A stretch of 64,000 bases of DNA from a virus: IMG/VR virus record IMGVR_UViG_3300028908_000006, positions 26,339-90,338 of that record. The stretch is one strand, 5' to 3'. Position 1 is the stretch's first letter; every line of letters starts with the position of its first letter. Below, piece by piece: positions 20,488-46,657 of the stretch. The notes beneath the pieces were generated by a model. It searched no databases and was not told the origin of the DNA. It saw only the letters and a list, made by a program, of their open reading frames with translations. A program made the translations under genes and the position numbers.

Positions 20488-20564
20488 TGGAGCCGGTGGA
20501 GGGACTCGAACCCTCAACCTATGGATTACAAATCCATTGCTCTACCAAATTGAGCTACACCGGC
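20488..20564 (-). tRNA. tRNA-Thr (anticodon TGT)
   Basis: Acceptor GCCGGTG/CACCGGC, a D-arm with GTAGCTCAATTTGGTAGAGC, an anticodon stem-loop with loop TTTGTAA (anticodon TGT at 20528-20530) and a T-arm GAGGGTTCGAGTCCCTC form a complete cloverleaf. CCA is encoded at the 3' end. It may offset demand for ACA codons in the phage genes. Confidence 0.95.
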
Positions 20565-21667: not shown

Positions 21668-21741
21668 GGGCCTGTAGCTCAGCTGGTTAGAGCCACCGGC
21701 TCATAACCGGTAGGTCCCTGGTTCAAGTCCAGGCAGGCCCA
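21668..21741 (+). tRNA. tRNA-Met (anticodon CAT)
   Basis: Acceptor GGGCCTG/CAGGCCC, a D-arm with GTAGCTCAGCTGGTTAGAGC, the anticodon arm ACCGG-CTCATAA-CCGGT (anticodon CAT at 21702-21704) and the T-arm CCTGGTTCAAGTCCAGG are complete. CCA is not encoded. An elongator Met identity is likely; an Ile2 (lysidine) identity cannot be excluded from sequence alone. Confidence 0.95.
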
Positions 21742-21742
21742 C

Positions 21743-28358: not shown

Positions 28359-28889
28359 TTAGGTTATTCCAAGTTTTTCTACAAACCAGGGAATATTTGG
28401 GATTACTTCTTCCGGATGCATCTCTTCCATTTTCTTCCTCAGGCTTAAAATAATATCTTCTCTTGCAAACCTGAACGTCTCTAAATCATCCAAAAACCTC
28501 AGAAGCCCAAGATAGCAGAAATCTGCAGGAAGGGGTGCCTTTGGGGAGATGAATCCATGCGGATAAGTCTGTTTTATTTCTTTGTTTTTGATGGTGGTGA
28601 TGTGGTAGAATAATTCGCTGCGCCATTGAACAAAATAAGGAACTCTGATAACTCGCATTCCATATTCTCTTAGAAGGCTTGATTTACTCTTATCGTTGAG
28701 AATCACTTTTGCCTTCGTGTAATGTAACGGACCATCGAACTCTACGACAGTATCAAGGTCTGGGATATAAATATCTGGAATAACTACTCTTCCAGCAACC
28801 TTTATCCTTTTGTTTCTTTCAATTTTTAATTCACATTCTCTTTTTAAGTATCTGTATAACCTTTCTTCCGTTAGAAACTTTTCTCTCAT
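28359..28889 (-). CDS. Free-standing PD-(D/E)XK-type nuclease, 176 aa
   Basis: VVIPDIYIPDLDTVVEFDGPLHY (about 35-57) followed by a conserved Lys/Arg helix and YGMRVIRVPYF resembles the VSR/DUF559 restriction-endonuclease-like core: an Asp in the first strand, E-x-D-G, then an R-V-x-x-V strand. It reads against all surrounding genes, just upstream of the capsid gene, which suits an inserted homing-type nuclease. The ATG at 28889 has no ribosome-binding site but lies 7 nt from a consensus promoter -10 box, implying a leaderless message. Confidence 0.6.
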   Translation of the reverse strand: MREKFLTEERLYRYLKRECELKIERNKRIKVAGRVVIPDIYIPDLDTVVEFDGPLHYTKAKVILNDKSKSSLLREYGMRVIRVPYFVQWRSELFYHITTIKNKEIKQTYPHGFISPKAPLPADFCYLGLLRFLDDLETFRFAREDIILSLRKKMEEMHPEEVIPNIPWFVEKLGIT

Positions 28890-28896
28890 AGCGATG

Positions 28897-28925
28897 TATC
28901 TACCACAGAAGCTTGTTGTAGTCAA
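28897..28925 (-). promoter_or_regulatory. Leftward promoter for the antisense nuclease
   Basis: TTGACT (28920-28925) and TAGATA (28897-28902), separated by 17 nt. The -10 box ends 7 nt before the ATG at 28889, so transcription should begin at or within a base or two of the start codon. Confidence 0.55.
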
Positions 28926-28942
28926 GATTAAAAATTTTAGCC

Positions 28943-28986
28943 TAACTACTTCCTCCCAAAATAACAAGGATAGGAGGAAGTAGTTA
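28943..28986 (+). promoter_or_regulatory. Hairpin enclosing the capsid gene ribosome-binding site
   Basis: A perfect 14-bp inverted repeat (28943-28956 with 28973-28986) with a 16-nt A-rich loop buries AGGAGG and the first base of the AUG. The 5' arm and its flank (a 21-nt stretch ending CCTCCCAAA) recur before the tail-tube gene at 32414-32434. A stabiliser, thermosensor or protein-binding control element of the major capsid mRNA is likely. Confidence 0.75.
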
Positions 28987-29993
28987 TGCCCTACGATATT
29001 ACAACCTTTAAAGAGTATATAGAGAAAGAGGCGTATTCGATCTTCTTCGACTCGCTTCCTGCCCCGGACCAGCCTTACTATCAGTTCGTTGAGGTGGATG
29101 AGGATACCGGTAAGATTCTCCACCAGACAGATTCTCTTGCTTACTCCGGGACTCTTGATACCTGGGAAGAGGGAGACACCCTCACTTATGAAGAGCCTCA
29201 GTTCGGTTATCCGGTGTATGGCCGAGTGAGGTTCTTCAGGAAGGGACGTAAGCTTACCTGGCATCAGCAGCAGATTCAGTCCCTCGCGGACCAGCTTCTG
29301 GCTCAGGTGCGTGATTGGGCCTGGGCTTATACCAGGACTAAGAATGAGTGGATTCGCCGGATGATCGAGGAAGGCGCTTTGACGGCTGGTTCTGCAGTAT
29401 TCAACCAGTCCATTGCTGGTTCCGATCCCTGGACAGACCCAACTGGTAACTTTATCTATGATAACAAGCCTTTCTTTGCCAATGACCTGTCTGGGACGGG
29501 TGGAAGCGACAATCGTCACCCTCTCAAGACAGATCCTACTAAGCTTTATGAGAACTATGCGGCTCTTCCGCTTACTTATGATAATTTGCTCACGGTTTAC
29601 AACAAGATGGTCCAGAACAATGTTGACGACTGGGGCCGTAAGATAGAGGTGCGACCTGATATTCTCCTGGTGCCAACTGCTCTTGAAGTAACTGCTCGTC
29701 AGCTGGTGGAAGCCGACTTCGCGCCTCATGATGATACCACTCCATCCAAGCCTAACCCGTTCAAGAATGTGCTTCGGGTAGTGGTATGGCCTGAGCTTCA
29801 GGTAAGTGATGGGTGGTGTTTGATCGATTCCAAGATGAAGGGAATCGTGGTGCTTGAGAATCCGGCTGACGTTGACATCAACGTTTGGATTGATGAGAAG
29901 GAGCGGGCGCTTTACTGTGACATCGTGTGTAAGTTTGGTGCCTATGTAAGGAACTGGCGTCCGTTCTTTGGTTGTAACTATCCTCAGAGCTAA
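28986..29993 (+). CDS. Major capsid protein (HK97-like), 335 aa
   Basis: Positioned after scaffold and terminase genes. It shows features of an HK97-fold shell protein: N-terminal arm, a beta-rich E-loop-like region (GTLDTWEEGDTLTYEEPQFG), a long spine helix (QQIQSLADQLLAQVRDWAWAYT), a P-domain with ILLVPTALEVTARQLVEA and a terminal strand with Trp/Tyr. No scaffold is fused to it, consistent with the separate scaffold gene. Codon use is noticeably more GC-rich and regular than in neighbours, as expected for a highly expressed gene. Confidence 0.78.
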   Translation: MPYDITTFKEYIEKEAYSIFFDSLPAPDQPYYQFVEVDEDTGKILHQTDSLAYSGTLDTWEEGDTLTYEEPQFGYPVYGRVRFFRKGRKLTWHQQQIQSLADQLLAQVRDWAWAYTRTKNEWIRRMIEEGALTAGSAVFNQSIAGSDPWTDPTGNFIYDNKPFFANDLSGTGGSDNRHPLKTDPTKLYENYAALPLTYDNLLTVYNKMVQNNVDDWGRKIEVRPDILLVPTALEVTARQLVEADFAPHDDTTPSKPNPFKNVLRVVVWPELQVSDGWCLIDSKMKGIVVLENPADVDINVWIDEKERALYCDIVCKFGAYVRNWRPFFGCNYPQS

Positions 29994-33457: not shown

Positions 33458-33534
33458 CGGGGAGTGGCGCAGTCAAGTAGCGCATCTGCCTTGGGAGCAG
33501 AAGGTCGGCGGTTCAAATCCGCCCTCCCCGACCA
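33458..33534 (+). tRNA. tRNA-Pro (anticodon TGG)
   Basis: Acceptor CGGGGAG/CTCCCCG, the anticodon arm TCTGC-CTTGGGA-GCAGA (anticodon TGG at 33492-33494) and the T-arm GGCGGTTCAAATCCGCC are present, and ACCA is encoded. It sits in the 130-nt gap between the tail-tube and tail-chaperone genes and must be cut out of a structural-gene transcript. Confidence 0.95.
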
Positions 33535-40600: not shown

Positions 40601-41592
40601 AAGATTTGATAGGGTATCTGGCATCTCTTGGTGATGCTGCCTACCAGGTGAACCAGCAGCTGGCTCAGCTCCAATATACGGCAGCATCAAGCGTGTTTGA
40701 GTGGAAAGGTGGAAGCTATGAGCTCTATGTAAAGAGACAGCGGCTTTCAGAAATAGAGGCAAAATATGGTATCTCTGATCGCGAAGTAGAGTATCTAGCA
40801 AATATGTATTACAAGTATCTTACAGGCGACCAGCAGGCTAAACAATTCGCAGAAGAGCTAATTGCTGCCTACGGGACAGAAGGAGAGAGGGACGCTTTAG
40901 AAGCTATCACGATCTGGACAGAACTCCAAAAGAATAATATGCGTGAGGCTTCAGATTATTCCAGCCAGATTCCTGATTACATGGATAAAGCAAAGCAGAA
41001 GATGATAGAGGCGCTCGATCTAATAGATCAAAAAATTACAGATCTAAAGCTTGGATCGCTTAACGTGGCTCTTCCAACTGAAAAACTGTCTGTTGCTGAA
41101 GAAGAATATAGAAAACTCTATAAAGAGGCACTATCAGGCGATAGTGACGCATTACGTGAGTATCTTAGTTTCAGCAGTCAATATCTTGAACTTTACCAAA
41201 GTGTATATAAATCATCGGAAGAGTATCAGAAAAAGTTTGACCAGGTAATGAGAGATCTTGAATACCTGAAACAGGTGTATGGGAGTCTCCCGTCATATCA
41301 GACAGGTGGTGTGGTAGAGGCGAGCCAGCTTGCAATTCTTCACGGGCCCGAAGCTGTGGTTCCGCTTGTAAATGGAGCGATCCCAGTTGCTATATCAGGT
41401 GGTGTTTCAAAAGAAGAGCTGGTAGAAGCTATGAAGGTGGCAATTTTATCAGCAGCAAATGAACGCCCACTAATGATAAAGGTATACATTGGTGGTGAAG
41501 AATTAACAGAGCATATCATAAAACTTGTTGACGAATACCGGGTCCAGGCTGCTGCAAGAAACGTCGTAGCGGATACTGTGAGGGTTTTCTGA
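34693..41592 (+). CDS. Tape measure protein, 2,299 aa
   Basis: Sets tail length and is probably ejected with the DNA. It is very long, with helical coiled-coil regions at the N-terminus, a conserved core (FADLSGIMKNIISLSVKTGKS, then KATGMPLEQMLGYLSVLSD) of the tape-measure family, glycine-zipper membrane-type segments near residues 715-755 and 1590-1620, and the usual C-terminal YQTGGVVEASQLAILHGPEAVVPL. Residues 1212-1316 and 1317-1421 are a near-perfect tandem duplication of 105 residues. At about 1.5 angstrom per residue this suggests a tail of several hundred nanometres. Confidence 0.9.
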   Translation: MARDTVRTEVEVQINPLIDGLNDLIRALEIYKQDIPRGLDAFTRAQEQFATSLEKASKAQRSAAGMLINQVKRDVNSVLREFDKLKVKAGLIAKELSDIAPKIGGEQAKELARELSIVEKQVKNIANDFSTVLPKALKENRQILTTQFTTDLRKISREFDNIVKKARQLAAENERAERAERRRLIETERIRARYQDRVSRIRTGEEFRKTAREISSVRRNVQALGREIEKEASRLDTLNKKMMAGARSLEQFEARVAARMKQQEKLYAIRGRELSLIAERMRTYPFQAHELARPAEQVITSMWIAGPRQTLKTWWAEAGKIAEKEGRRQAGVFIQSFGQFFKQNFARAFGAWLGAAITTFPIAYGVISTIGELNRQYNVLVDVSRYVQSATVGVAGTFADLSGIMKNIISLSVKTGKSFEEVGKALWEMKSAGFGMREALAGTEVALKLTMLAGGGIDIGKATRIVAGMYRLFKDQFAGIADETERFKNMFGEVVYVLNSSQIALDELLRSFEYFGATAKATGMPLEQMLGYLSVLSDERLPGVGRAARQAANQIAQAIPMIAARYGIVLDSSKSLASEMNKVFEALNARIKDGTLSLEEFSVWMKEAGVRGGPAIIALARNWDKVKRTIELLKDSQKSLAMDFDEFFETVAEIRMSTFEMQWNRLKNAIFGVTAEGIHPLKNEMADLFKIMADGFETLWKALDNTSLALDALLASAGAFIGARVGAATGAMFGGPLGAMIGGSLGLGAGIGLGKFQHWSEEQIQKQIIGFTYDDLSKAINNLFAPERFVPLIEDALSNVKKSMDTVDAAFGDDLIESSFSYDEASVKAAAERIARAFNAQFVLAISSSNLKDEISKKLSESFRIDPDVIANMIQSGATTEEIWKYINDRLLEAAEAAGVTEEQLRSLTTTLKEGYTETKRYADNLKYFAETLVLASTGKKGLENAAIGINENYKSLLVTLGRLSDKLYEIKQIEARIAAGESGDELARQWNELVAQANALSDSVVTYAKNIASKYSTISRGISEIENKYRSLAAIGNPFEGMLKAADDIERIRKTIAALNSEGTRFKEVGKKIEEALANVSDENIRKGLEALLDIYKKIGELSGKDFGGLKESIFDAELDKILKKLDTKIRSHVVALGEDLSGDIAQIYKDTVNAVLSGEGAEGTSAIDELEKQLKARRDEIVSKYGEEKYKKILDEIIDRKKKLIQLEEIRIGLAESKKIIEALKKEKEAVQSLGDVYKEVSDMVFELYVSSLPEKEQEYIKLVQKYNELSGRIVQERNKALEAGVDISIYDKAQELLDEWLKKQKEILEGQEKIKIGLAESKKIIETLKKEKEALQSLGDTYREVSELVFELYVSSLPEKEQEYIKLVRKYRELSGKIIQERNKALEAGIDTSAYDRAQELLDEWFNRQKEKLNEQYDIHKKTTEKIKNIWKGVPDSLENVIANWIRELKVDFDDVVEIVKDAAARSVAAWIMAWAQAQFMVPIPMAAPAYGGGQAGVQVGGASAGGGFVAPPGTWSAFNNGLQNYFTAPTRFMGWLTYSLPSGPWTKPLAYGTAWLYNNPWASAGIMSGFTTYLFTGDLKSAAFSGLGAGIGYALGGPVGGFLGGAAGSFLGGLFGKKKYPKVKYEAEFTVDFVPGSGFRLAEFDLTTTRKHGAKKEYEESVRKEIEQIINQPIDWLNQMYAEVIGDLPDNLRQRFDRELAQIKYSATLKERTHKSLKGDINTMQFQAYIRDLFLTYGQTFEEAFQEEMRLGVEKFEVVSPYLKENVRNWIVEQAQELFPDDVFEKLKEIPIENMGSKDFEKWLEENIKPLFDDISAWEEFYDWAMEYLSNVEEIVTSIEDGLKYFTSFGSKMRSLSIEFKELVSQMDEMGIDFSKLYDSYKNMVQQQFRLSLVQQFPELYSGDLYLETLMNNLAPVIDYLGIGYEQIWNLVKSGNYQAFTDILWNIGDNLEFLMQVSEETGISIEDLIGYLASLGDAAYQVNQQLAQLQYTAASSVFEWKGGSYELYVKRQRLSEIEAKYGISDREVEYLANMYYKYLTGDQQAKQFAEELIAAYGTEGERDALEAITIWTELQKNNMREASDYSSQIPDYMDKAKQKMIEALDLIDQKITDLKLGSLNVALPTEKLSVAEEEYRKLYKEALSGDSDALREYLSFSSQYLELYQSVYKSSEEYQKKFDQVMRDLEYLKQVYGSLPSYQTGGVVEASQLAILHGPEAVVPLVNGAIPVAISGGVSKEELVEAMKVAILSAANERPLMIKVYIGGEELTEHIIKLVDEYRVQAAARNVVADTVRVF
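38326..38955 (+). repeat. 315-bp in-frame tandem duplication inside the tape measure gene
   Basis: Two copies (38326-38640 and 38641-38955) encode 105-residue units sharing long identical runs such as FELYVSSLPEKEQEYIKLV. Both copies are in frame. Divergence is mostly at third positions and a few residues, so it is a fairly recent duplication that would lengthen the tail. Confidence 0.85.
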
Positions 41593-42974
41593 TGAAAAAA
41601 CTGTTCATTAAGCTGGTAAGCCAGATTGACCCGTCAAAAGAATTTTATTTTGCAGTTGGTGGACACCAAGGAAGCCACAATTGGAAAGATGCAATTCTGA
41701 ATGACGTTCAAATATCATGGGGAGTAAGAAACAATCTTGGCGGATATGCTTATGTCAACTGGGGAAGGCTTGAGATAGCACGAACTGAGATAGATTCGGA
41801 TCCATATAATATGTATGCATATATCGGAGAAGATGAAGACAGCCTGGAATTATTCTTTGAAGGTTATGCTATCCGTGAACAGCTTACATATCCATCGTTG
41901 GTTCTTGGAGTGTATGGTAAAGACTATGATGCACTCGTTCTAGACGAGGGAGTGTTCCTTGACAGGGACGGGAATGCATCACCAGAGAAATACAAGAAGA
42001 TAACATTTGGGACGTTACTGGAATATATTCCATGTCAACGAGTCGGATCGTCGAGTGAGTATAAATACGTAAAGCCGTTGATAAAGGGGACAAGCCCAGG
42101 AACTGATTATCATGTTTATGATGACGGGGTGAATATAGACGGTAACGTGACTGACAATGGCGACGGGACATTTAATCTCAGTAGTGCGCCTGTTGGAGAA
42201 GTATCAATATCAGGGACTTCAGAATATGTGCATTCTACTCCCTATTCTCCATACGGAGATAGATTTTCAGATTCTGTGTATGATTTCGTAGCTGATAGAA
42301 TATCGGCAACACTCATAACAACACCCTACTGGAAAGATTCACCGACAATTTCAAAGTTCGTAAAAACACAACTAAAGATAACCGACTTGCTGGACCATGT
42401 ATCACGGCTCGTCCCAGCAATAGCATATTGTGTTGGTAGTAATGTATATGCGTTTGCAATAGGACGCCTAAAAACATACAGCACTTCATTTTCAGAGTTC
42501 GTTTCGAATCAGCCTGAAGAGGAGCCATACTCATTCTACCTCAACGAAGACATGATGATAGATTTTAAAATCGAATGGCCATCTCCAACAAAATTCATTG
42601 TTGGAAACTACGAATATCGTGAGGCAGTCCTTGATAGGACTGGTTACCATGTAAAGACAGAACGAATGGATCTAAAACATGATGTTGGCTTTGCAGTTGG
42701 TGGAGAATACAATGTTGGAGATTGGATTCATCCATCATTATTTTGGAGCGAAGTAGGAGGAATACATAATTACATCAACAACATCAGATGTAGAGTGAAA
42801 TGTAACCTTGAAGACGTTTATGGAATAAAACCAGGCTACATACTTGGAATTGATGTCCCAGATGAGTTCATGAGTATATTTACGCAAAAGTTTAATATAT
42901 TTGTGGTAACAGGGATAAACATTAACTTTTCAAGATATACGGTTGATCTTACCGGAGTTTGGAGCCCGTTATGA
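41592..42974 (+). CDS. Distal tail or tail-tip protein, 460 aa
   Basis: Starts at the A that closes the tape-measure stop codon (TGATG). The sequence is beta-rich, with small domains (SWGVRNNLGGYAYVNWGR, DYHVYDDGVNIDGNV, FKIEWPSPTKFIVGNY). Position after the tape measure suits a tail-tip/baseplate hub protein. No exact family recognised. Confidence 0.55.
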   Translation: MKKLFIKLVSQIDPSKEFYFAVGGHQGSHNWKDAILNDVQISWGVRNNLGGYAYVNWGRLEIARTEIDSDPYNMYAYIGEDEDSLELFFEGYAIREQLTYPSLVLGVYGKDYDALVLDEGVFLDRDGNASPEKYKKITFGTLLEYIPCQRVGSSSEYKYVKPLIKGTSPGTDYHVYDDGVNIDGNVTDNGDGTFNLSSAPVGEVSISGTSEYVHSTPYSPYGDRFSDSVYDFVADRISATLITTPYWKDSPTISKFVKTQLKITDLLDHVSRLVPAIAYCVGSNVYAFAIGRLKTYSTSFSEFVSNQPEEEPYSFYLNEDMMIDFKIEWPSPTKFIVGNYEYREAVLDRTGYHVKTERMDLKHDVGFAVGGEYNVGDWIHPSLFWSEVGGIHNYINNIRCRVKCNLEDVYGIKPGYILGIDVPDEFMSIFTQKFNIFVVTGININFSRYTVDLTGVWSPL

Positions 42975-43702
42975 AGGTTATCTATCCTGATAGGATACAG
43001 TCGATTTCAGCATCATCGTCTGCAAGCGGATTTCCAGTTGAAAACCTGCTCGATGATTGGCCGCAGAACATCTGGAAGGCTACAAGTAATACAGCTTCAA
43101 TCACAATTGAGGTTGGTGGGAGCTCAGATGCTATTGCAATGTTCAATGTCAATGCTGACACAGTTACAATCAATGTTGAAGATGAAGATCAAATAGAGAT
43201 AGATCTCAGAGTGATCGACACCTATGAAAGCCTCATACTCGACACACCAAACATATACAGAGAGTTCTTTATAGAATATCCGTATAAGGCTGTCCAGCAC
43301 ACAATAACAATTGAGCTGGAAGCGCCAGAAGGAGATATTGTTTCTGCTGGAATCATACGGGCGGGGTTGTCAAGAACTTTCAGTAATCCCGATTACCCTC
43401 TCCAGGAGACCTGGCAGGACTATTCCATCATCAAGAGGACAGTTACAGGGCGAACATATGTGGTCCACAAACCAAAAGCAAGGAAGCTGTCAGGGAGTTT
43501 CCTGGCTCCATTTGAGAGTGATTTCTTGAAGTTCATAACCCTTTATAGAGAGCTTGACTTCAAGCCATTTGCCTGGCTTGTAGCCTCTGATGTTGATGAT
43601 AAACACTTTGCGGTGTTTGCCAGATTTGAAAATCCGCCATCTATCAGACATGCATATCCAGGCTATGTCGTAATAAATTTTATACTTGAGGAGGTAGTAT
43701 AA
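42971..43702 (+). CDS. Tail-tip protein, 243 aa
   Basis: ATG 42971 overlaps the previous stop (ATGA). It begins KVIYPDRIQSISASSSASGF-PVENLLDDWPQNIWKA, a jelly-roll-like opening seen in phage tail-tip proteins, and ends in beta strands (HAYPGYVVINFILEEVV). It is probably a structural partner of the preceding protein. Confidence 0.55.
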   Translation: MKVIYPDRIQSISASSSASGFPVENLLDDWPQNIWKATSNTASITIEVGGSSDAIAMFNVNADTVTINVEDEDQIEIDLRVIDTYESLILDTPNIYREFFIEYPYKAVQHTITIELEAPEGDIVSAGIIRAGLSRTFSNPDYPLQETWQDYSIIKRTVTGRTYVVHKPKARKLSGSFLAPFESDFLKFITLYRELDFKPFAWLVASDVDDKHFAVFARFENPPSIRHAYPGYVVINFILEEVV

Positions 43703-44622
43703 TGCCCAGTTACACATGGCCGGAATTCCCGGCTACAAAAGAAAGTAATTTTGAACAAAAAGCCAGAACGGCGTTGAACAGTTGGCGGTCAAATGCCGCT
43801 GATATGGATATACGCATAGAAGACATAGAAGGATTTCTGGAAAATAATTCTGATTTCACACCAGACCCAACAAGGTTCAGAAATAGCGTTCATAATGCGC
43901 TTATTACAGATGGTGTAGCGAAGAACATAAACTATTATGTTGACCCTGATACAGGATCTGATACGAATGATGGATCTTCTAGTGCTCCGTTTGCAACACT
44001 TGAAAAAGCACTTGAAAGTGTCCCACCAGGCGGTCATGCTGTAATATACTTAAATGCTGGGAAAACGTACACACTTACAAGACCTGTAATATTATTTAAT
44101 ACCACTATTCTCGTATCAAAAACGGGAACTGATTCTGTAACTATCACGCCGCAGTATTACGTATCAGGAGATAAAGCGTGGTGTCCGTGTATTTCACTAA
44201 GAAATTCATGTATACGTTTTGAGAAGGTAACCTTTAATATCGTAACCAATACAACAGGTTATTCGTTTTCATTACATCAGAACTCAATAGTAAGAGTAGG
44301 GCGGAATGATTGTTTTGGGGCTGTTCATTTCTATTACTGTGACATTGATATAAATGATATAGATGTAAGACTAGTATCAGGTAATAATTATGGAGATGGA
44401 CCATCAATAATAGGCGTCTCACATTATGCGATTACAATAAACGTAAATGCAGATGGATTTCTTATAGACATATCAAAAAGTACATTGGCATATAGTGTAT
44501 CTGGTGGGACAATAAATGACAACGCCGGCACAGGAAAAACAACGTATCAATCACTTGTAACAGGAGTTGTCAAAGATACAGATGGGAAGCCAAGGAACGT
44601 TATAAGCAATCTCATATTCTAA
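43702..44622 (+). CDS. Tail fibre/spike with pectate-lyase-like beta-helix, 306 aa
   Basis: After an N-terminal helical adaptor (about 1-60), NYYVDPDTGSDTNDGSSSAP-FATLEKALESVP begins a right-handed beta-helix of the DUF1565/pectate-lyase type, continuing through repeated short strands to the C-terminus. This is typical of receptor-binding or polysaccharide-degrading spikes. It is short for a spike. The IscB locus begins directly after its stop. Confidence 0.65.
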   Translation: MPSYTWPEFPATKESNFEQKARTALNSWRSNAADMDIRIEDIEGFLENNSDFTPDPTRFRNSVHNALITDGVAKNINYYVDPDTGSDTNDGSSSAPFATLEKALESVPPGGHAVIYLNAGKTYTLTRPVILFNTTILVSKTGTDSVTITPQYYVSGDKAWCPCISLRNSCIRFEKVTFNIVTNTTGYSFSLHQNSIVRVGRNDCFGAVHFYYCDIDINDIDVRLVSGNNYGDGPSIIGVSHYAITINVNADGFLIDISKSTLAYSVSGGTINDNAGTGKTTYQSLVTGVVKDTDGKPRNVISNLIF

Positions 44623-44627
44623 GGACC

Positions 44628-44945
44628 TCCCTAAACCATAAGCTTTTATGAGTTTTCTTATGGTTTAGGCGGGTCTGAGGCAGAGGTGGTTCCAATGTGG
44701 GATAAGCTGAACTCAGCAAATGTGAAGCTGAGAGGTGAAGAGGAGAGATTAATTCTCTCCCTCCACCTATGTCCCATGGTTACCCACAAGGGTAGGCACC
44801 TTGGGGTGGTGCGCCAGCTCCAAGCTCTGCCGGTGGTGGGGAACGAAACCCAGCCTGAGACGGCGTTGGTGAACATCTCCATCACTATCAGAGACCATGG
44901 GACTTTGCCGAGGCGCAACATAACCCTATTTGGGAGATGGCTTAA
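44628..44945 (+). ncRNA. Candidate omega-RNA of the IscB system
   Basis: The 318 nt between the spike stop and iscB contain no gene but dense secondary structure. There is a perfect 13-bp hairpin (44630-44642 with 44657-44669), a hairpin at 44733-44768 (AGGTG/CACCT around GGAGAGA-TTAAT-TCTCTCC), a CACC/GGTG hairpin near 44799-44812 and a GGGG-AACGAAA-CCC loop near 44838-44851. IscB omega-RNAs are encoded immediately 5' of iscB on the same strand with the guide at the RNA 5' end. The exact ends and guide are not determined here. Confidence 0.6.
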
Positions 44946-46136
44946 ATGCCAACTACTCAAATGAAAGTTTTTGTAGTAGACGCAGAAGGTGAGCCTCTTC
45001 TACCTACTACTCCAGCAAGAGCAAGGTTATTGTTGAAAAGAGGGAAAGCAAGGGTTTATAGAATGATTCCATTTGCAATTCAGTTAAACAGAGCTGTTAA
45101 CAATCATGTTGGAAAATTCACGGCAGCTGTTGATGATGGAGCTAAGTGGATAGGAATTGCTGTTAAAGGTAAAGATGAAATTGTATTTGCCGCTAACGTT
45201 AGGTTGAGACAGAATGTGAGTAAGAAAGTCAAAGAAAGAGCAATGTATCGTAGGAACAGAAGAAACAGATTAAGATATAGGCCCGTACGGTTTTTGAATA
45301 GAAGTAGGGAAAAAGGTTGGTTGCCTCCTTCTATCAGATATAGGAAAGAGGTTGTTCTGAGAGTTATTAATGACCTTAGAAAATTTCTCAACATTACAGA
45401 TATTGTTATTGAACAAGGTTCCTTTGACGTTTCTTCAATTGCGGCAGGTAAAAAACTTAGTGGTAGGGAATACCAACAGAAGCGATATGAAGGTAAAAAC
45501 TTTAGAGAGAAGGTTCTTAAAAGAGATGGTTATACTTGTCAGATTTGTGGTAGTAGGAGAAGTCTTGAAGTGCACCATATAGTCCCAAGAAGCAAGGGTG
45601 GGACTAATATTGTGGAAAATGGGTTTACACTTTGTAAAGATTGCCACAAAGCTGTCCATGATGGAAAGGTAAAATTGACTGCTAACGTATTATCTCCAAA
45701 GTATGCTTCTATTACTCAACAAGGAAAGTTGTGGTTGTATAGGAAACTGAAAGAACAGTTCAGAAACGTAGAAATGACTTTTGGTTATTTGACAAGAAGA
45801 ATGAGAGAAAAGCTTGGACTTACAAAGGACCACTATGCAGATGCTTGCGCGATGCTTAACTGCAACAGAATAACCTCTCCCGTTTATCTCATCATTCCAC
45901 GAAGGAGGAGACCAGAGGTAAATAATCCAGCTAAAAAACGTGATGAGTATAAAGGTTTCAGACATTTTGACATTGTAGTTGCCTATCATAAGACAAAAGG
46001 AAAGGTAGTTGGCTGCGTGAGGAGTTTAAAAAAGAATGGTTTAGCGATAAGAACAAAGTTTTCAGACAACTTTGTGGTTGGATATACGAAGAGCAAACTA
46101 TTGTGGAGACCAAGAGGGTTAGTGTATGTGGTTTGA
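44946..46136 (+). CDS. iscB: IscB-type RNA-guided nuclease (RuvC plus HNH), 396 aa
   Basis: All IscB parts are visible in order. The N-terminal PLMP (RRXRR) domain is GEPLLPTTPARARLLLKRGK (15-34). RuvC-I is AAVDDGAKWIGIAV (D63), followed by the Arg-rich bridge helix YRRNRRNRLRYR (101-112), RuvC-II DIVIEQGSFD (E156), HNH CQIC...VHH...LCKDC (C198, C201, H210, H211, C230, C233) and RuvC-III DHYADACAM (H296, D299). The C-terminus (GFRHFDIVVAYHKTKGKVVG) resembles the target-adjacent-motif-reading domain. Catalytic residues are intact. GGGAG precedes the ATG at 44946; ATG 44961 is possible. No transposase is nearby. Confidence 0.88.
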   Translation: MPTTQMKVFVVDAEGEPLLPTTPARARLLLKRGKARVYRMIPFAIQLNRAVNNHVGKFTAAVDDGAKWIGIAVKGKDEIVFAANVRLRQNVSKKVKERAMYRRNRRNRLRYRPVRFLNRSREKGWLPPSIRYRKEVVLRVINDLRKFLNITDIVIEQGSFDVSSIAAGKKLSGREYQQKRYEGKNFREKVLKRDGYTCQICGSRRSLEVHHIVPRSKGGTNIVENGFTLCKDCHKAVHDGKVKLTANVLSPKYASITQQGKLWLYRKLKEQFRNVEMTFGYLTRRMREKLGLTKDHYADACAMLNCNRITSPVYLIIPRRRRPEVNNPAKKRDEYKGFRHFDIVVAYHKTKGKVVGCVRSLKKNGLAIRTKFSDNFVVGYTKSKLLWRPRGLVYVV

Positions 46137-46195
46137 AAACTATCAAGAACTAATGGAAACTAATGAAAAACTAGACTATTCAGAAGGGGGATGAA

Positions 46196-46657
46196 ATGAA
46201 GATTCTGAGAATAATAAAGATCGGAGATACGATCTATGAAAATATCTACCTCTATACCGAAGATGAGAATGGTAATAGGATTTATAACATCCCAACGGAC
46301 ATAACGGAATTGAAGCAAGCAGTAAACGATACTCTTGGTTATCTCACAATGAAAAAGATCTCTTCTATCTTGGTGGCAGTAGATAAAAAGGATGCCGCTA
46401 TGACAAAGGCCATCTGTCTGCTGGCAAAGGTGATTAACTCTTTGTCTCCAGATACAACCGTTCTCACAGATAAGGAACAGACAGCATTCAAGGCTATGGT
46501 ATCTCTGGCTGATAGCGGATATACGGATTCAGAACTCCTAAACAACGCTCTAACTGAAATCTCATCCGCCCTGGCCTGGTATGAATCAAAAGCAAGTGAA
46601 CTGGAGTCTTTAAATGATTTTGATTCTATTGTTTCTTTTCTTTCTGATCTCAAGTAA
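46196..46657 (+). CDS. Hypothetical protein, 153 aa
   Basis: Acidic helical protein with no family recognised. AGAAGGGGGATGAA precedes the ATG. It is the first gene after the IscB locus and overlaps the caspase-like gene by 44 bp. Confidence 0.55.
   Translation: MKILRIIKIGDTIYENIYLYTEDENGNRIYNIPTDITELKQAVNDTLGYLTMKKISSILVAVDKKDAAMTKAICLLAKVINSLSPDTTVLTDKEQTAFKAMVSLADSGYTDSELLNNALTEISSALAWYESKASELESLNDFDSIVSFLSDLK

What the first reader, a model, noticed from the sequence alone, without database searches (positions are those of the whole stretch)
44628..46136. Phage-borne IscB nuclease with a structured upstream omega-RNA candidate, no transposase
The IscB protein keeps every catalytic and structural element (PLMP, bridge helix, split RuvC, HNH), and the 318 nt before it are non-coding and highly structured. 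It sits between a tail spike gene and late genes with no tnpA, so the unit resembles a homing-type selfish element or a tool against competing phages more than an insertion sequence. If the element begins right after the spike stop, the guide at the RNA 5' end would be copied from the end of the spike gene and would target uninterrupted relatives.
Basis: partly seen in the sequence, partly recalled or inferred. Interest (0 to 1): 0.88.

Follow-up and report, generated by a model that had tools for sequence, protein, structure and literature searches.

The report
Phage-borne IscB element with guide RNA
A phage carries a small jumping unit made of an RNA-guided DNA-cutting enzyme (IscB, a relative of the Cas9 ancestor) and its guide RNA, slotted exactly between a tail gene and the ribosome-binding site of the next gene; nearly the same unit sits in an unrelated phage and in a bacterial chromosome, so it moves without a transposase of its own.

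Summary
Window 44946-46136 encodes a complete IscB (NCBIfam guided_IscB, E 1e-92). The ~320 nt before it is a HEARO/omega-RNA: full-length but sub-threshold Rfam match, fold z = -7.8, and across 13 related elements 42 of 69 base pairs show double compensatory changes. The unit has defined borders. A 77%-identical copy in a Desulfobacterales chromosome and a 77%-identical copy (protein 78%) in an unrelated phage both begin at window 44621-44623, just after the spike stop codon. No TnpA (Y1) gene was found in the 90-kb virus record. The three copies share no flanking sequence, so this is an IS-like mobile unit and not only a homing gene. Related chromosomal copies gave four uninterrupted sites, and all four already held GGAGG at the junction. 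In the window, GGGGG (the next gene's Shine-Dalgarno) takes that place. Most likely mechanism: RNA-guided cutting of element-free alleles, so the unit is retained and spreads among co-infecting phages. Cutting, guide identity and TAM are inferred. Phage-borne IscB is already known; new are the Shine-Dalgarno-adjacent insertion and a large phage clade with HNH-less forms.

The parts
43702..44622 (+). upstream neighbour: tail-spike-like gene (306 aa), intact, stop codon TAA at 44620-44622 directly abuts the element
   Evidence: ORF; weak Pel9A beta-helix and PHROG tail protein matches
44603..44622 (+). putative guide (16-20 nt 5' of the scaffold), TAAGCAATCTCATATTCTAA = 3' end of the spike gene with its stop codon
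   Evidence: inferred: scaffold begins at 44623 by comparison with L004 and L043 and 12 elements have 12 different left flanks before the same scaffold start; guide lies 5' of the scaffold in solved IscB/IsrB complexes (PMC9640706, PMC9581776)
44623..44676 (+). left end: stem GGACCU/GGGUCU carrying the hairpin CUAAACCAUAAG/CUUAUGGUUUAG (equivalent of the guide-adaptor stem and SL1)
   Evidence: MFE fold; compensatory changes in L043 and L004 and in 13-element alignment
44623..44945 (+). omega-RNA scaffold (about 323 nt from left end to the iscB start codon)
   Evidence: nhmmer finds it only once in the record
44712..44923 (+). Rfam HEARO RF02033 match (model 1-211 of 211, 54 bits, below gathering score)
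44946..46136 (+). iscB, 396 aa: N-terminal PLMP-like (PLLP), split RuvC, bridge helix, HNH, C-terminal TAM-interacting region
46137..46185 (+). right end with about 10-bp repeats (ACTAATGAAA-like); the end at 46185 is inferred
   Evidence: alignment with L004 runs to 46169; end placed by the GGRGG junction rule
46186..46190 (+). GGGGG: Shine-Dalgarno of the next gene and candidate 3' target-adjacent motif
   Evidence: sequence; four empty sites of relatives hold GGAGG at the junction; enrichment 19/28 v 57/260
46196..46657 (+). downstream neighbour (153 aa, unknown function), start codon 5 nt after GGGGG

Best explanation
A complete, transposase-less IscB/omega-RNA (HEARO) mobile element of about 1.56 kb (44623 to about 46185) sits in a tailed-phage genome between the stop codon of a tail-spike gene and the Shine-Dalgarno of the next gene. 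Proposed mechanism: transcription through the spike end yields an RNA whose first 16-20 nt (spike 3' end) are the guide and whose next ~320 nt are the scaffold. IscB binds it and cuts DNA that carries the uninterrupted junction ...CTCATATTCTAA|GGGGG..., with the G-rich Shine-Dalgarno as 3' target-adjacent motif. The resident copy is immune because the element separates guide sequence from motif. Repair from the element-bearing genome copies the element in, so it is retained and spreads among co-infecting or related phages. First arrival at a new site needs another agent, probably a transposase acting in trans. Shown: protein, RNA fold, borders, mobility between unrelated sites, insertion next to GGAGG in relatives. 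Inferred: guide identity, TAM, cleavage, homing.
For: Protein; purifying selection. RNA: HEARO; fold z -7.76; 42 of 69 pairs with double changes, 96.8% of cells paired, 0/500 shuffles, slid controls 37-51% paired. Borders and mobility: alignments with L004 (chromosome, mobA upstream and CNNM downstream) and L043 (phage, DNA polymerase A upstream) start at window 44621-44623 and have no flanking similarity. Empty sites: L004 v G085, L082 v G465, L006 v G468, L077 v G465 all hold GGAGG at the junction before insertion; L004's left flank matches the G085 empty allele over the TAM-proximal 13 nt. GGRGG within 65 nt after iscB: 19 of 28 against 57 of 260 other ORFs, p = 1.4e-6. Phage-chromosome exchange in the tree: L004 is sister to L043 (98/84) inside the window clade (100/100).
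Against: No transcript or cleavage data. No element-free relative of this phage was found, so the predicted target was not seen. The Rfam score is below the curated cut-off. The right border is inferred from the motif rule. Three of the four empty sites come from one pair of related genomes. In a dense phage genome an insertion just before a Shine-Dalgarno is also one of the few harmless places, so selection could explain part of the pattern. One empty allele (L077/G465) differs from the guide at two TAM-proximal positions.
Confidence: 0.75

Rival explanations
1. The unit is a phage weapon or counter-defence tool: IscB with its RNA was recruited to cut genomes of competing phages or host elements, and the target is not simply the empty allele.
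For: It lies in a late region; the clade is frequent in large phage contigs (34 viral loci), several copies can share one phage (L049, L050), and the protein is under purifying selection.
Against: Exact transposon-like borders, recurrence in unrelated sites and in bacterial chromosomes, and no extra guide RNA copies in the record point to a selfish unit whose only guide is its own insertion site. Cutting the empty allele would by itself exclude element-free relatives, so the two readings overlap.
Confidence: 0.12
2. Passenger remnant: a once mobile, non-autonomous insertion that is no longer active and only sits harmlessly between two genes.
For: No transposase in the record; no matching Y1 IS ends found near the Y1 genes of related chromosomes; no recognisable promoter above chance.
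Against: Intact 396-aa frame with all catalytic residues, dN/dS about 0.09, structure kept by compensatory changes.
Confidence: 0.1
3. The RNA starts at the HEARO model start (44712) and the guide is internal (44696-44711), not the host flank.
For: The Rfam match begins at 44712.
Against: The segment before 44712 (GGGATAAGCTGAA) is conserved in all relatives with invariant TAAG..GA and lies among paired, covarying helices, so it cannot record an insertion site; variable sequence begins only 5' of 44623. In the solved IsrB complex the guide adjoins the outer stem that corresponds to 44623-44676 (PMC9581776).
Confidence: 0.03

Closest known systems
IscB OMEGA nucleases of ISC / IS200-IS605-type elements (OgeuIscB, HfmIscB, TbaIscB; NCBIfam NF040563)
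   Same: Same domain order and catalytic residues, omega-RNA immediately upstream, guide expected 5' of the scaffold and a purine-rich motif 3' of the target (OgeuIscB TAM NNRR, PMC9640706)
   Different: Smaller (396 aa), no TnpA, carried by a phage, clade-specific left-end stem not captured by the Rfam model, insertion next to GGRGG Shine-Dalgarno sequences
HEARO RNA (Rfam RF02033)
   Same: Full-length structural match with the HNH-type ORF downstream; PMC9755519 equates HEARO with IscB and notes HEARO nucleases in viral genomes
   Different: Score below gathering cut-off; extra 54-nt left-end stem-hairpin
IsrB of Desulfovirgula thermocuniculi (PMC9581776)
   Same: Long omega-RNA with guide-adaptor stem plus hairpin at the 5' end and a 3' hairpin that contains the nuclease gene's own Shine-Dalgarno; PLMP-RuvC architecture
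   Different: IsrB lacks HNH; the window protein has it (close phage relatives without HNH exist)
HEARO-annotated IscB of Staphylococcus Silviavirus phages (PMC13346280; vB_SauM_VL10 etc.)
   Same: IscB-type HNH nuclease (with an annotated HEARO RNA in PMC13346280) in a lytic phage
   Different: Only about 30% protein identity
TnpB retention / plasmid gene drive (PMC11870625)
   Same: Proposed logic: guide copied from the insertion flank, cleavage of element-free molecules
   Different: TnpB is RuvC-only with 5' TAM and 3' guide (general knowledge of the family); shown in plasmids, not phages

Membership tests
IscB (NF040563 guided_IscB) | Sequence family score above curated cut-off | tested here: met
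   310.7 bits against 175
IscB (NF040563 guided_IscB) | Split RuvC catalytic residues, bridge helix, HNH, C-terminal TAM-interacting region | tested here: met
   (D63/D64, E156, H210/H211, H296/D299)
IscB (NF040563 guided_IscB) | RNA-guided DNA cleavage | not testable with these tools
   needs biochemistry
HEARO / omega-RNA (RF02033) | Covariance model match | tested here: inconclusive
   full model 1-211, E 1.2e-9 in 2.2 kb, but 54 bits below gathering 83; not listed in the gathering scan
HEARO / omega-RNA (RF02033) | Conserved structured RNA directly upstream of an HNH-type ORF | tested here: met
   covariation in 13 elements, all taken directly upstream of iscB
Autonomous ISC / IS200-IS605 transposon | Y1 TnpA transposase in the element | tested here: not met
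   no PF01797 match in the 90-kb record; element holds only iscB
Autonomous ISC / IS200-IS605 transposon | Defined ends and movement to unrelated sites | tested here: met
   three unrelated contexts; empty sites of related elements
Autonomous ISC / IS200-IS605 transposon | Subterminal left-end hairpin | tested here: met
   44623-44676, covarying; recognition by a TnpA not tested
Free-standing homing endonuclease | Cuts the cognate element-free allele and is copied into it | not testable with these tools
   no element-free relative of this phage found

The most novel reading that the evidence does not exclude
A phage-adapted clade of IscB elements uses the Shine-Dalgarno GGRGG as insertion and target-adjacent motif. 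Every landing is then a harmless gap between two genes, with the guide taken from the end of the upstream gene, and the elements spread between phages as RNA-guided, self-reprogramming homing genes without a transposase of their own.
Probability: 0.4. Interest if true: 0.75.

Novelty: new variant of a known kind. Interest (0 to 1): 0.55.

Why it matters
Conventional phage homing nucleases recognise fixed sites. An IscB unit that rewrites its own guide at each landing and prefers ribosome-binding sites would be a reprogrammable homing gene suited to gene-dense phage genomes. It also gives a specific, testable prediction (guide = spike 3' end, TAM = GGRGG) and a set of compact phage IscBs, with and without HNH, for enzymology.

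Tried and rejected
Empty site of this phage: no relatives found by DNA, by the neighbouring genes 41592-42974, 42959-43702, 43702-44622 and 46196-46657 or by the predicted junction sequence (the two 18-mer hits L117 and L118 are unrelated). The terminase search gave only distant phages. A second match to the guide in the window: none beyond chance. Extra stand-alone scaffold copies in the record: none. Mobilising Y1 IS with matching ends in related chromosomes: none in the four loci read. Promoter/terminator scan: not above shuffled expectation. PADLOC: only partial HNH matches. Element DNA in phage and plasmid records: none. VirB4 neighbour of L007: no relatives with the locus. Idea that GGAGG belongs to the element's right end rather than to the target: rejected because four uninterrupted alleles already carry it. 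Structure prediction was not run because sequence identity of the family is already decisive.

Full report
What is there. The ORF 44946-46136 (+) encodes a 396-aa IscB. It scores 310.7 bits against the NCBIfam equivalog guided_IscB (cut-off 175), has Pfam RRXRR and HNH, and matches solved IscBs from residue 5-8 onwards at E down to 1e-44. In an alignment of seven relatives the catalytic and zinc residues are invariant. Against the 76%-identical L004 protein the dN/dS ratio is about 0.09, so the protein is being kept. The surrounding genes (portal, scaffold, terminase, tail) make the record a tailed phage; the window is bases 26339-90338 of a 90,338-base virus record.

The RNA. Rfam at its gathering threshold reports no HEARO in the window. 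The permissive search gives the complete HEARO model at 44712-44923 with 54 bits and E 1.2e-9, under the gathering score of 83. A likely reason for the weaker score is that this clade has an extra 5' domain. The stretch 44623-44948 folds with -147 kcal/mol, z -7.76. I aligned 13 elements from phages and chromosomes from their left ends to the iscB start. The consensus has 69 pairs, 96.8% of cells paired, 42 pairs with changes on both sides, 0 of 500 shuffles as high on any measure, and slid controls at 37-51% paired. The fold was derived from the same alignment, which favours it over slid versions, but the shuffles and the number of double changes do not depend on that alone. The 5' domain (44623-44676) is a stem GGACCU/GGGUCU topped by a hairpin whose arms are rewritten in L043 (GAAACUGUAAC/GUUACAGUUUC) and L004 with pairing largely kept. 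It corresponds in place to the guide-adaptor stem and SL1 of the IsrB omega-RNA, where SL1 was found dispensable for nicking and suggested to serve transposon mobility (PMC9581776).

Borders. A chromosomal copy in a Desulfobacterales genome (L004) aligns to the window at 77% from 44622 to 46169 and nowhere outside; a copy in another phage (L043, 66-kb contig) starts at 44621 and also shares nothing outside. The L004 flanks are mobA and a CNNM/CBS gene, those of L043 a DNA polymerase A and an unknown gene. In the tree L004 is sister to L043, with the window next to them (100/100). One compact unit has therefore moved between two phages and a chromosome. The left border is firm to 1-2 nt. The right end after 46169 is inferred.

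The insertion site. Related genomes give uninterrupted alleles for four chromosomal copies: L004 v G085, GATATGA|GGAGG; L082 v G465, TTTGG|AAGGAGG; L006 v G468, within GAAGGAAGGGAGG; L077 v G465, TTAAGTA|GGAGGTG. Each had GGAGG before the insertion. Over 28 iscB-type genes of the clade, 19 have GGRGG within 65 nt after the stop, against 57 of 260 other ORFs in the same loci (p = 1.4e-6). L049 and L050 have GGGGG without an obvious Shine-Dalgarno context, which hints at a motif preference rather than only selection for harmless sites; the two are not separated by these data. In the window the same rule puts the right end at 46185, followed by GGGGG, a 5-nt spacer and the ATG of the next gene at 46196. 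The spike gene keeps its stop codon. Nothing is disrupted.

How it probably works. In solved IscB and IsrB complexes the guide is the 5' segment of the RNA (about 16-20 nt) and the TAM lies 3' of the target; OgeuIscB reads NNRR (PMC9640706, PMC9581776). Twelve elements with the same scaffold start have twelve different 20-nt left flanks, as expected if the flank is the guide. For the window the guide would be TAAGCAATCTCATATTCTAA, the end of the spike gene, and the target an uninterrupted phage with that sequence followed by GGGGG. The resident copy is protected because the element's own left end follows the guide sequence. This is the retention and drive logic shown for TnpB in plasmids (PMC11870625). 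In phages, repair of the cut by the co-infecting element-bearing genome would be homing. Guide, TAM and cutting are inference. Transfer to non-homologous sites needs something else; no Y1 transposase is in the record, and no IS with matching ends was found near the Y1 genes of related chromosomes that I read.

What is known and new. IscB/HEARO nucleases in viral genomes were noted in PMC9755519, and HEARO was annotated in Silviavirus phages (PMC13346280). The open library held no paper that links IscB insertion with Shine-Dalgarno sequences; subscription papers were not searchable. I therefore file the element as a variant of a known kind: an orphan (TnpA-less) IscB/omega-RNA element of a phage-rich clade with a ribosome-binding-site-adjacent insertion habit.

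Noticed in passing
L060, L065-L070, L072, L073 (viral contigs): Phage-borne relatives of about 309-321 aa lack the HNH domain (three checked: Pfam RRXRR only); the seven put in the tree form one clade (99/99) nested among HNH-bearing phage IscBs: an apparent single HNH loss that yields IsrB-like proteins inside an IscB clade, unless the rooting misleads.
   Followed up: partly
L049 and L050 (IMGVR_UViG_3300025669_002088); L053: One 126-kb phage contig carries two iscB elements (86% DNA identity), and a contig identical over 4.7 kb carries another copy about 5 kb from the L050 site, so these elements can be multicopy within one phage. L050 lacks the left-end hairpin.
   Followed up: partly
L084 and L085 (G468:C1:855305-858161): An iscB split into two parts about 1.7 kb apart, apparently interrupted by another insertion.
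   Followed up: no
L002:2662-4281: A Cpn60/TCP-1 chaperonin gene lies directly downstream of iscB in a viral contig.
   Followed up: no
window 46137-46169: About 10-bp repeats (ACTAATGAAA-like) between the iscB stop and the right end; similar period-10 repeats in L004, L006 and L007 right ends. Possible recognition sites for a mobilising enzyme.
   Followed up: no
window 28359-29729 (-): 456-aa gene with a weak PHROG HNH-endonuclease / DUF559 match between terminase and connector genes, on the opposite strand.
   Followed up: no
window 20488-20564, 21668-21742, 33458-33534: Three tRNA genes (Thr, Met, Pro) in the phage window.
   Followed up: no
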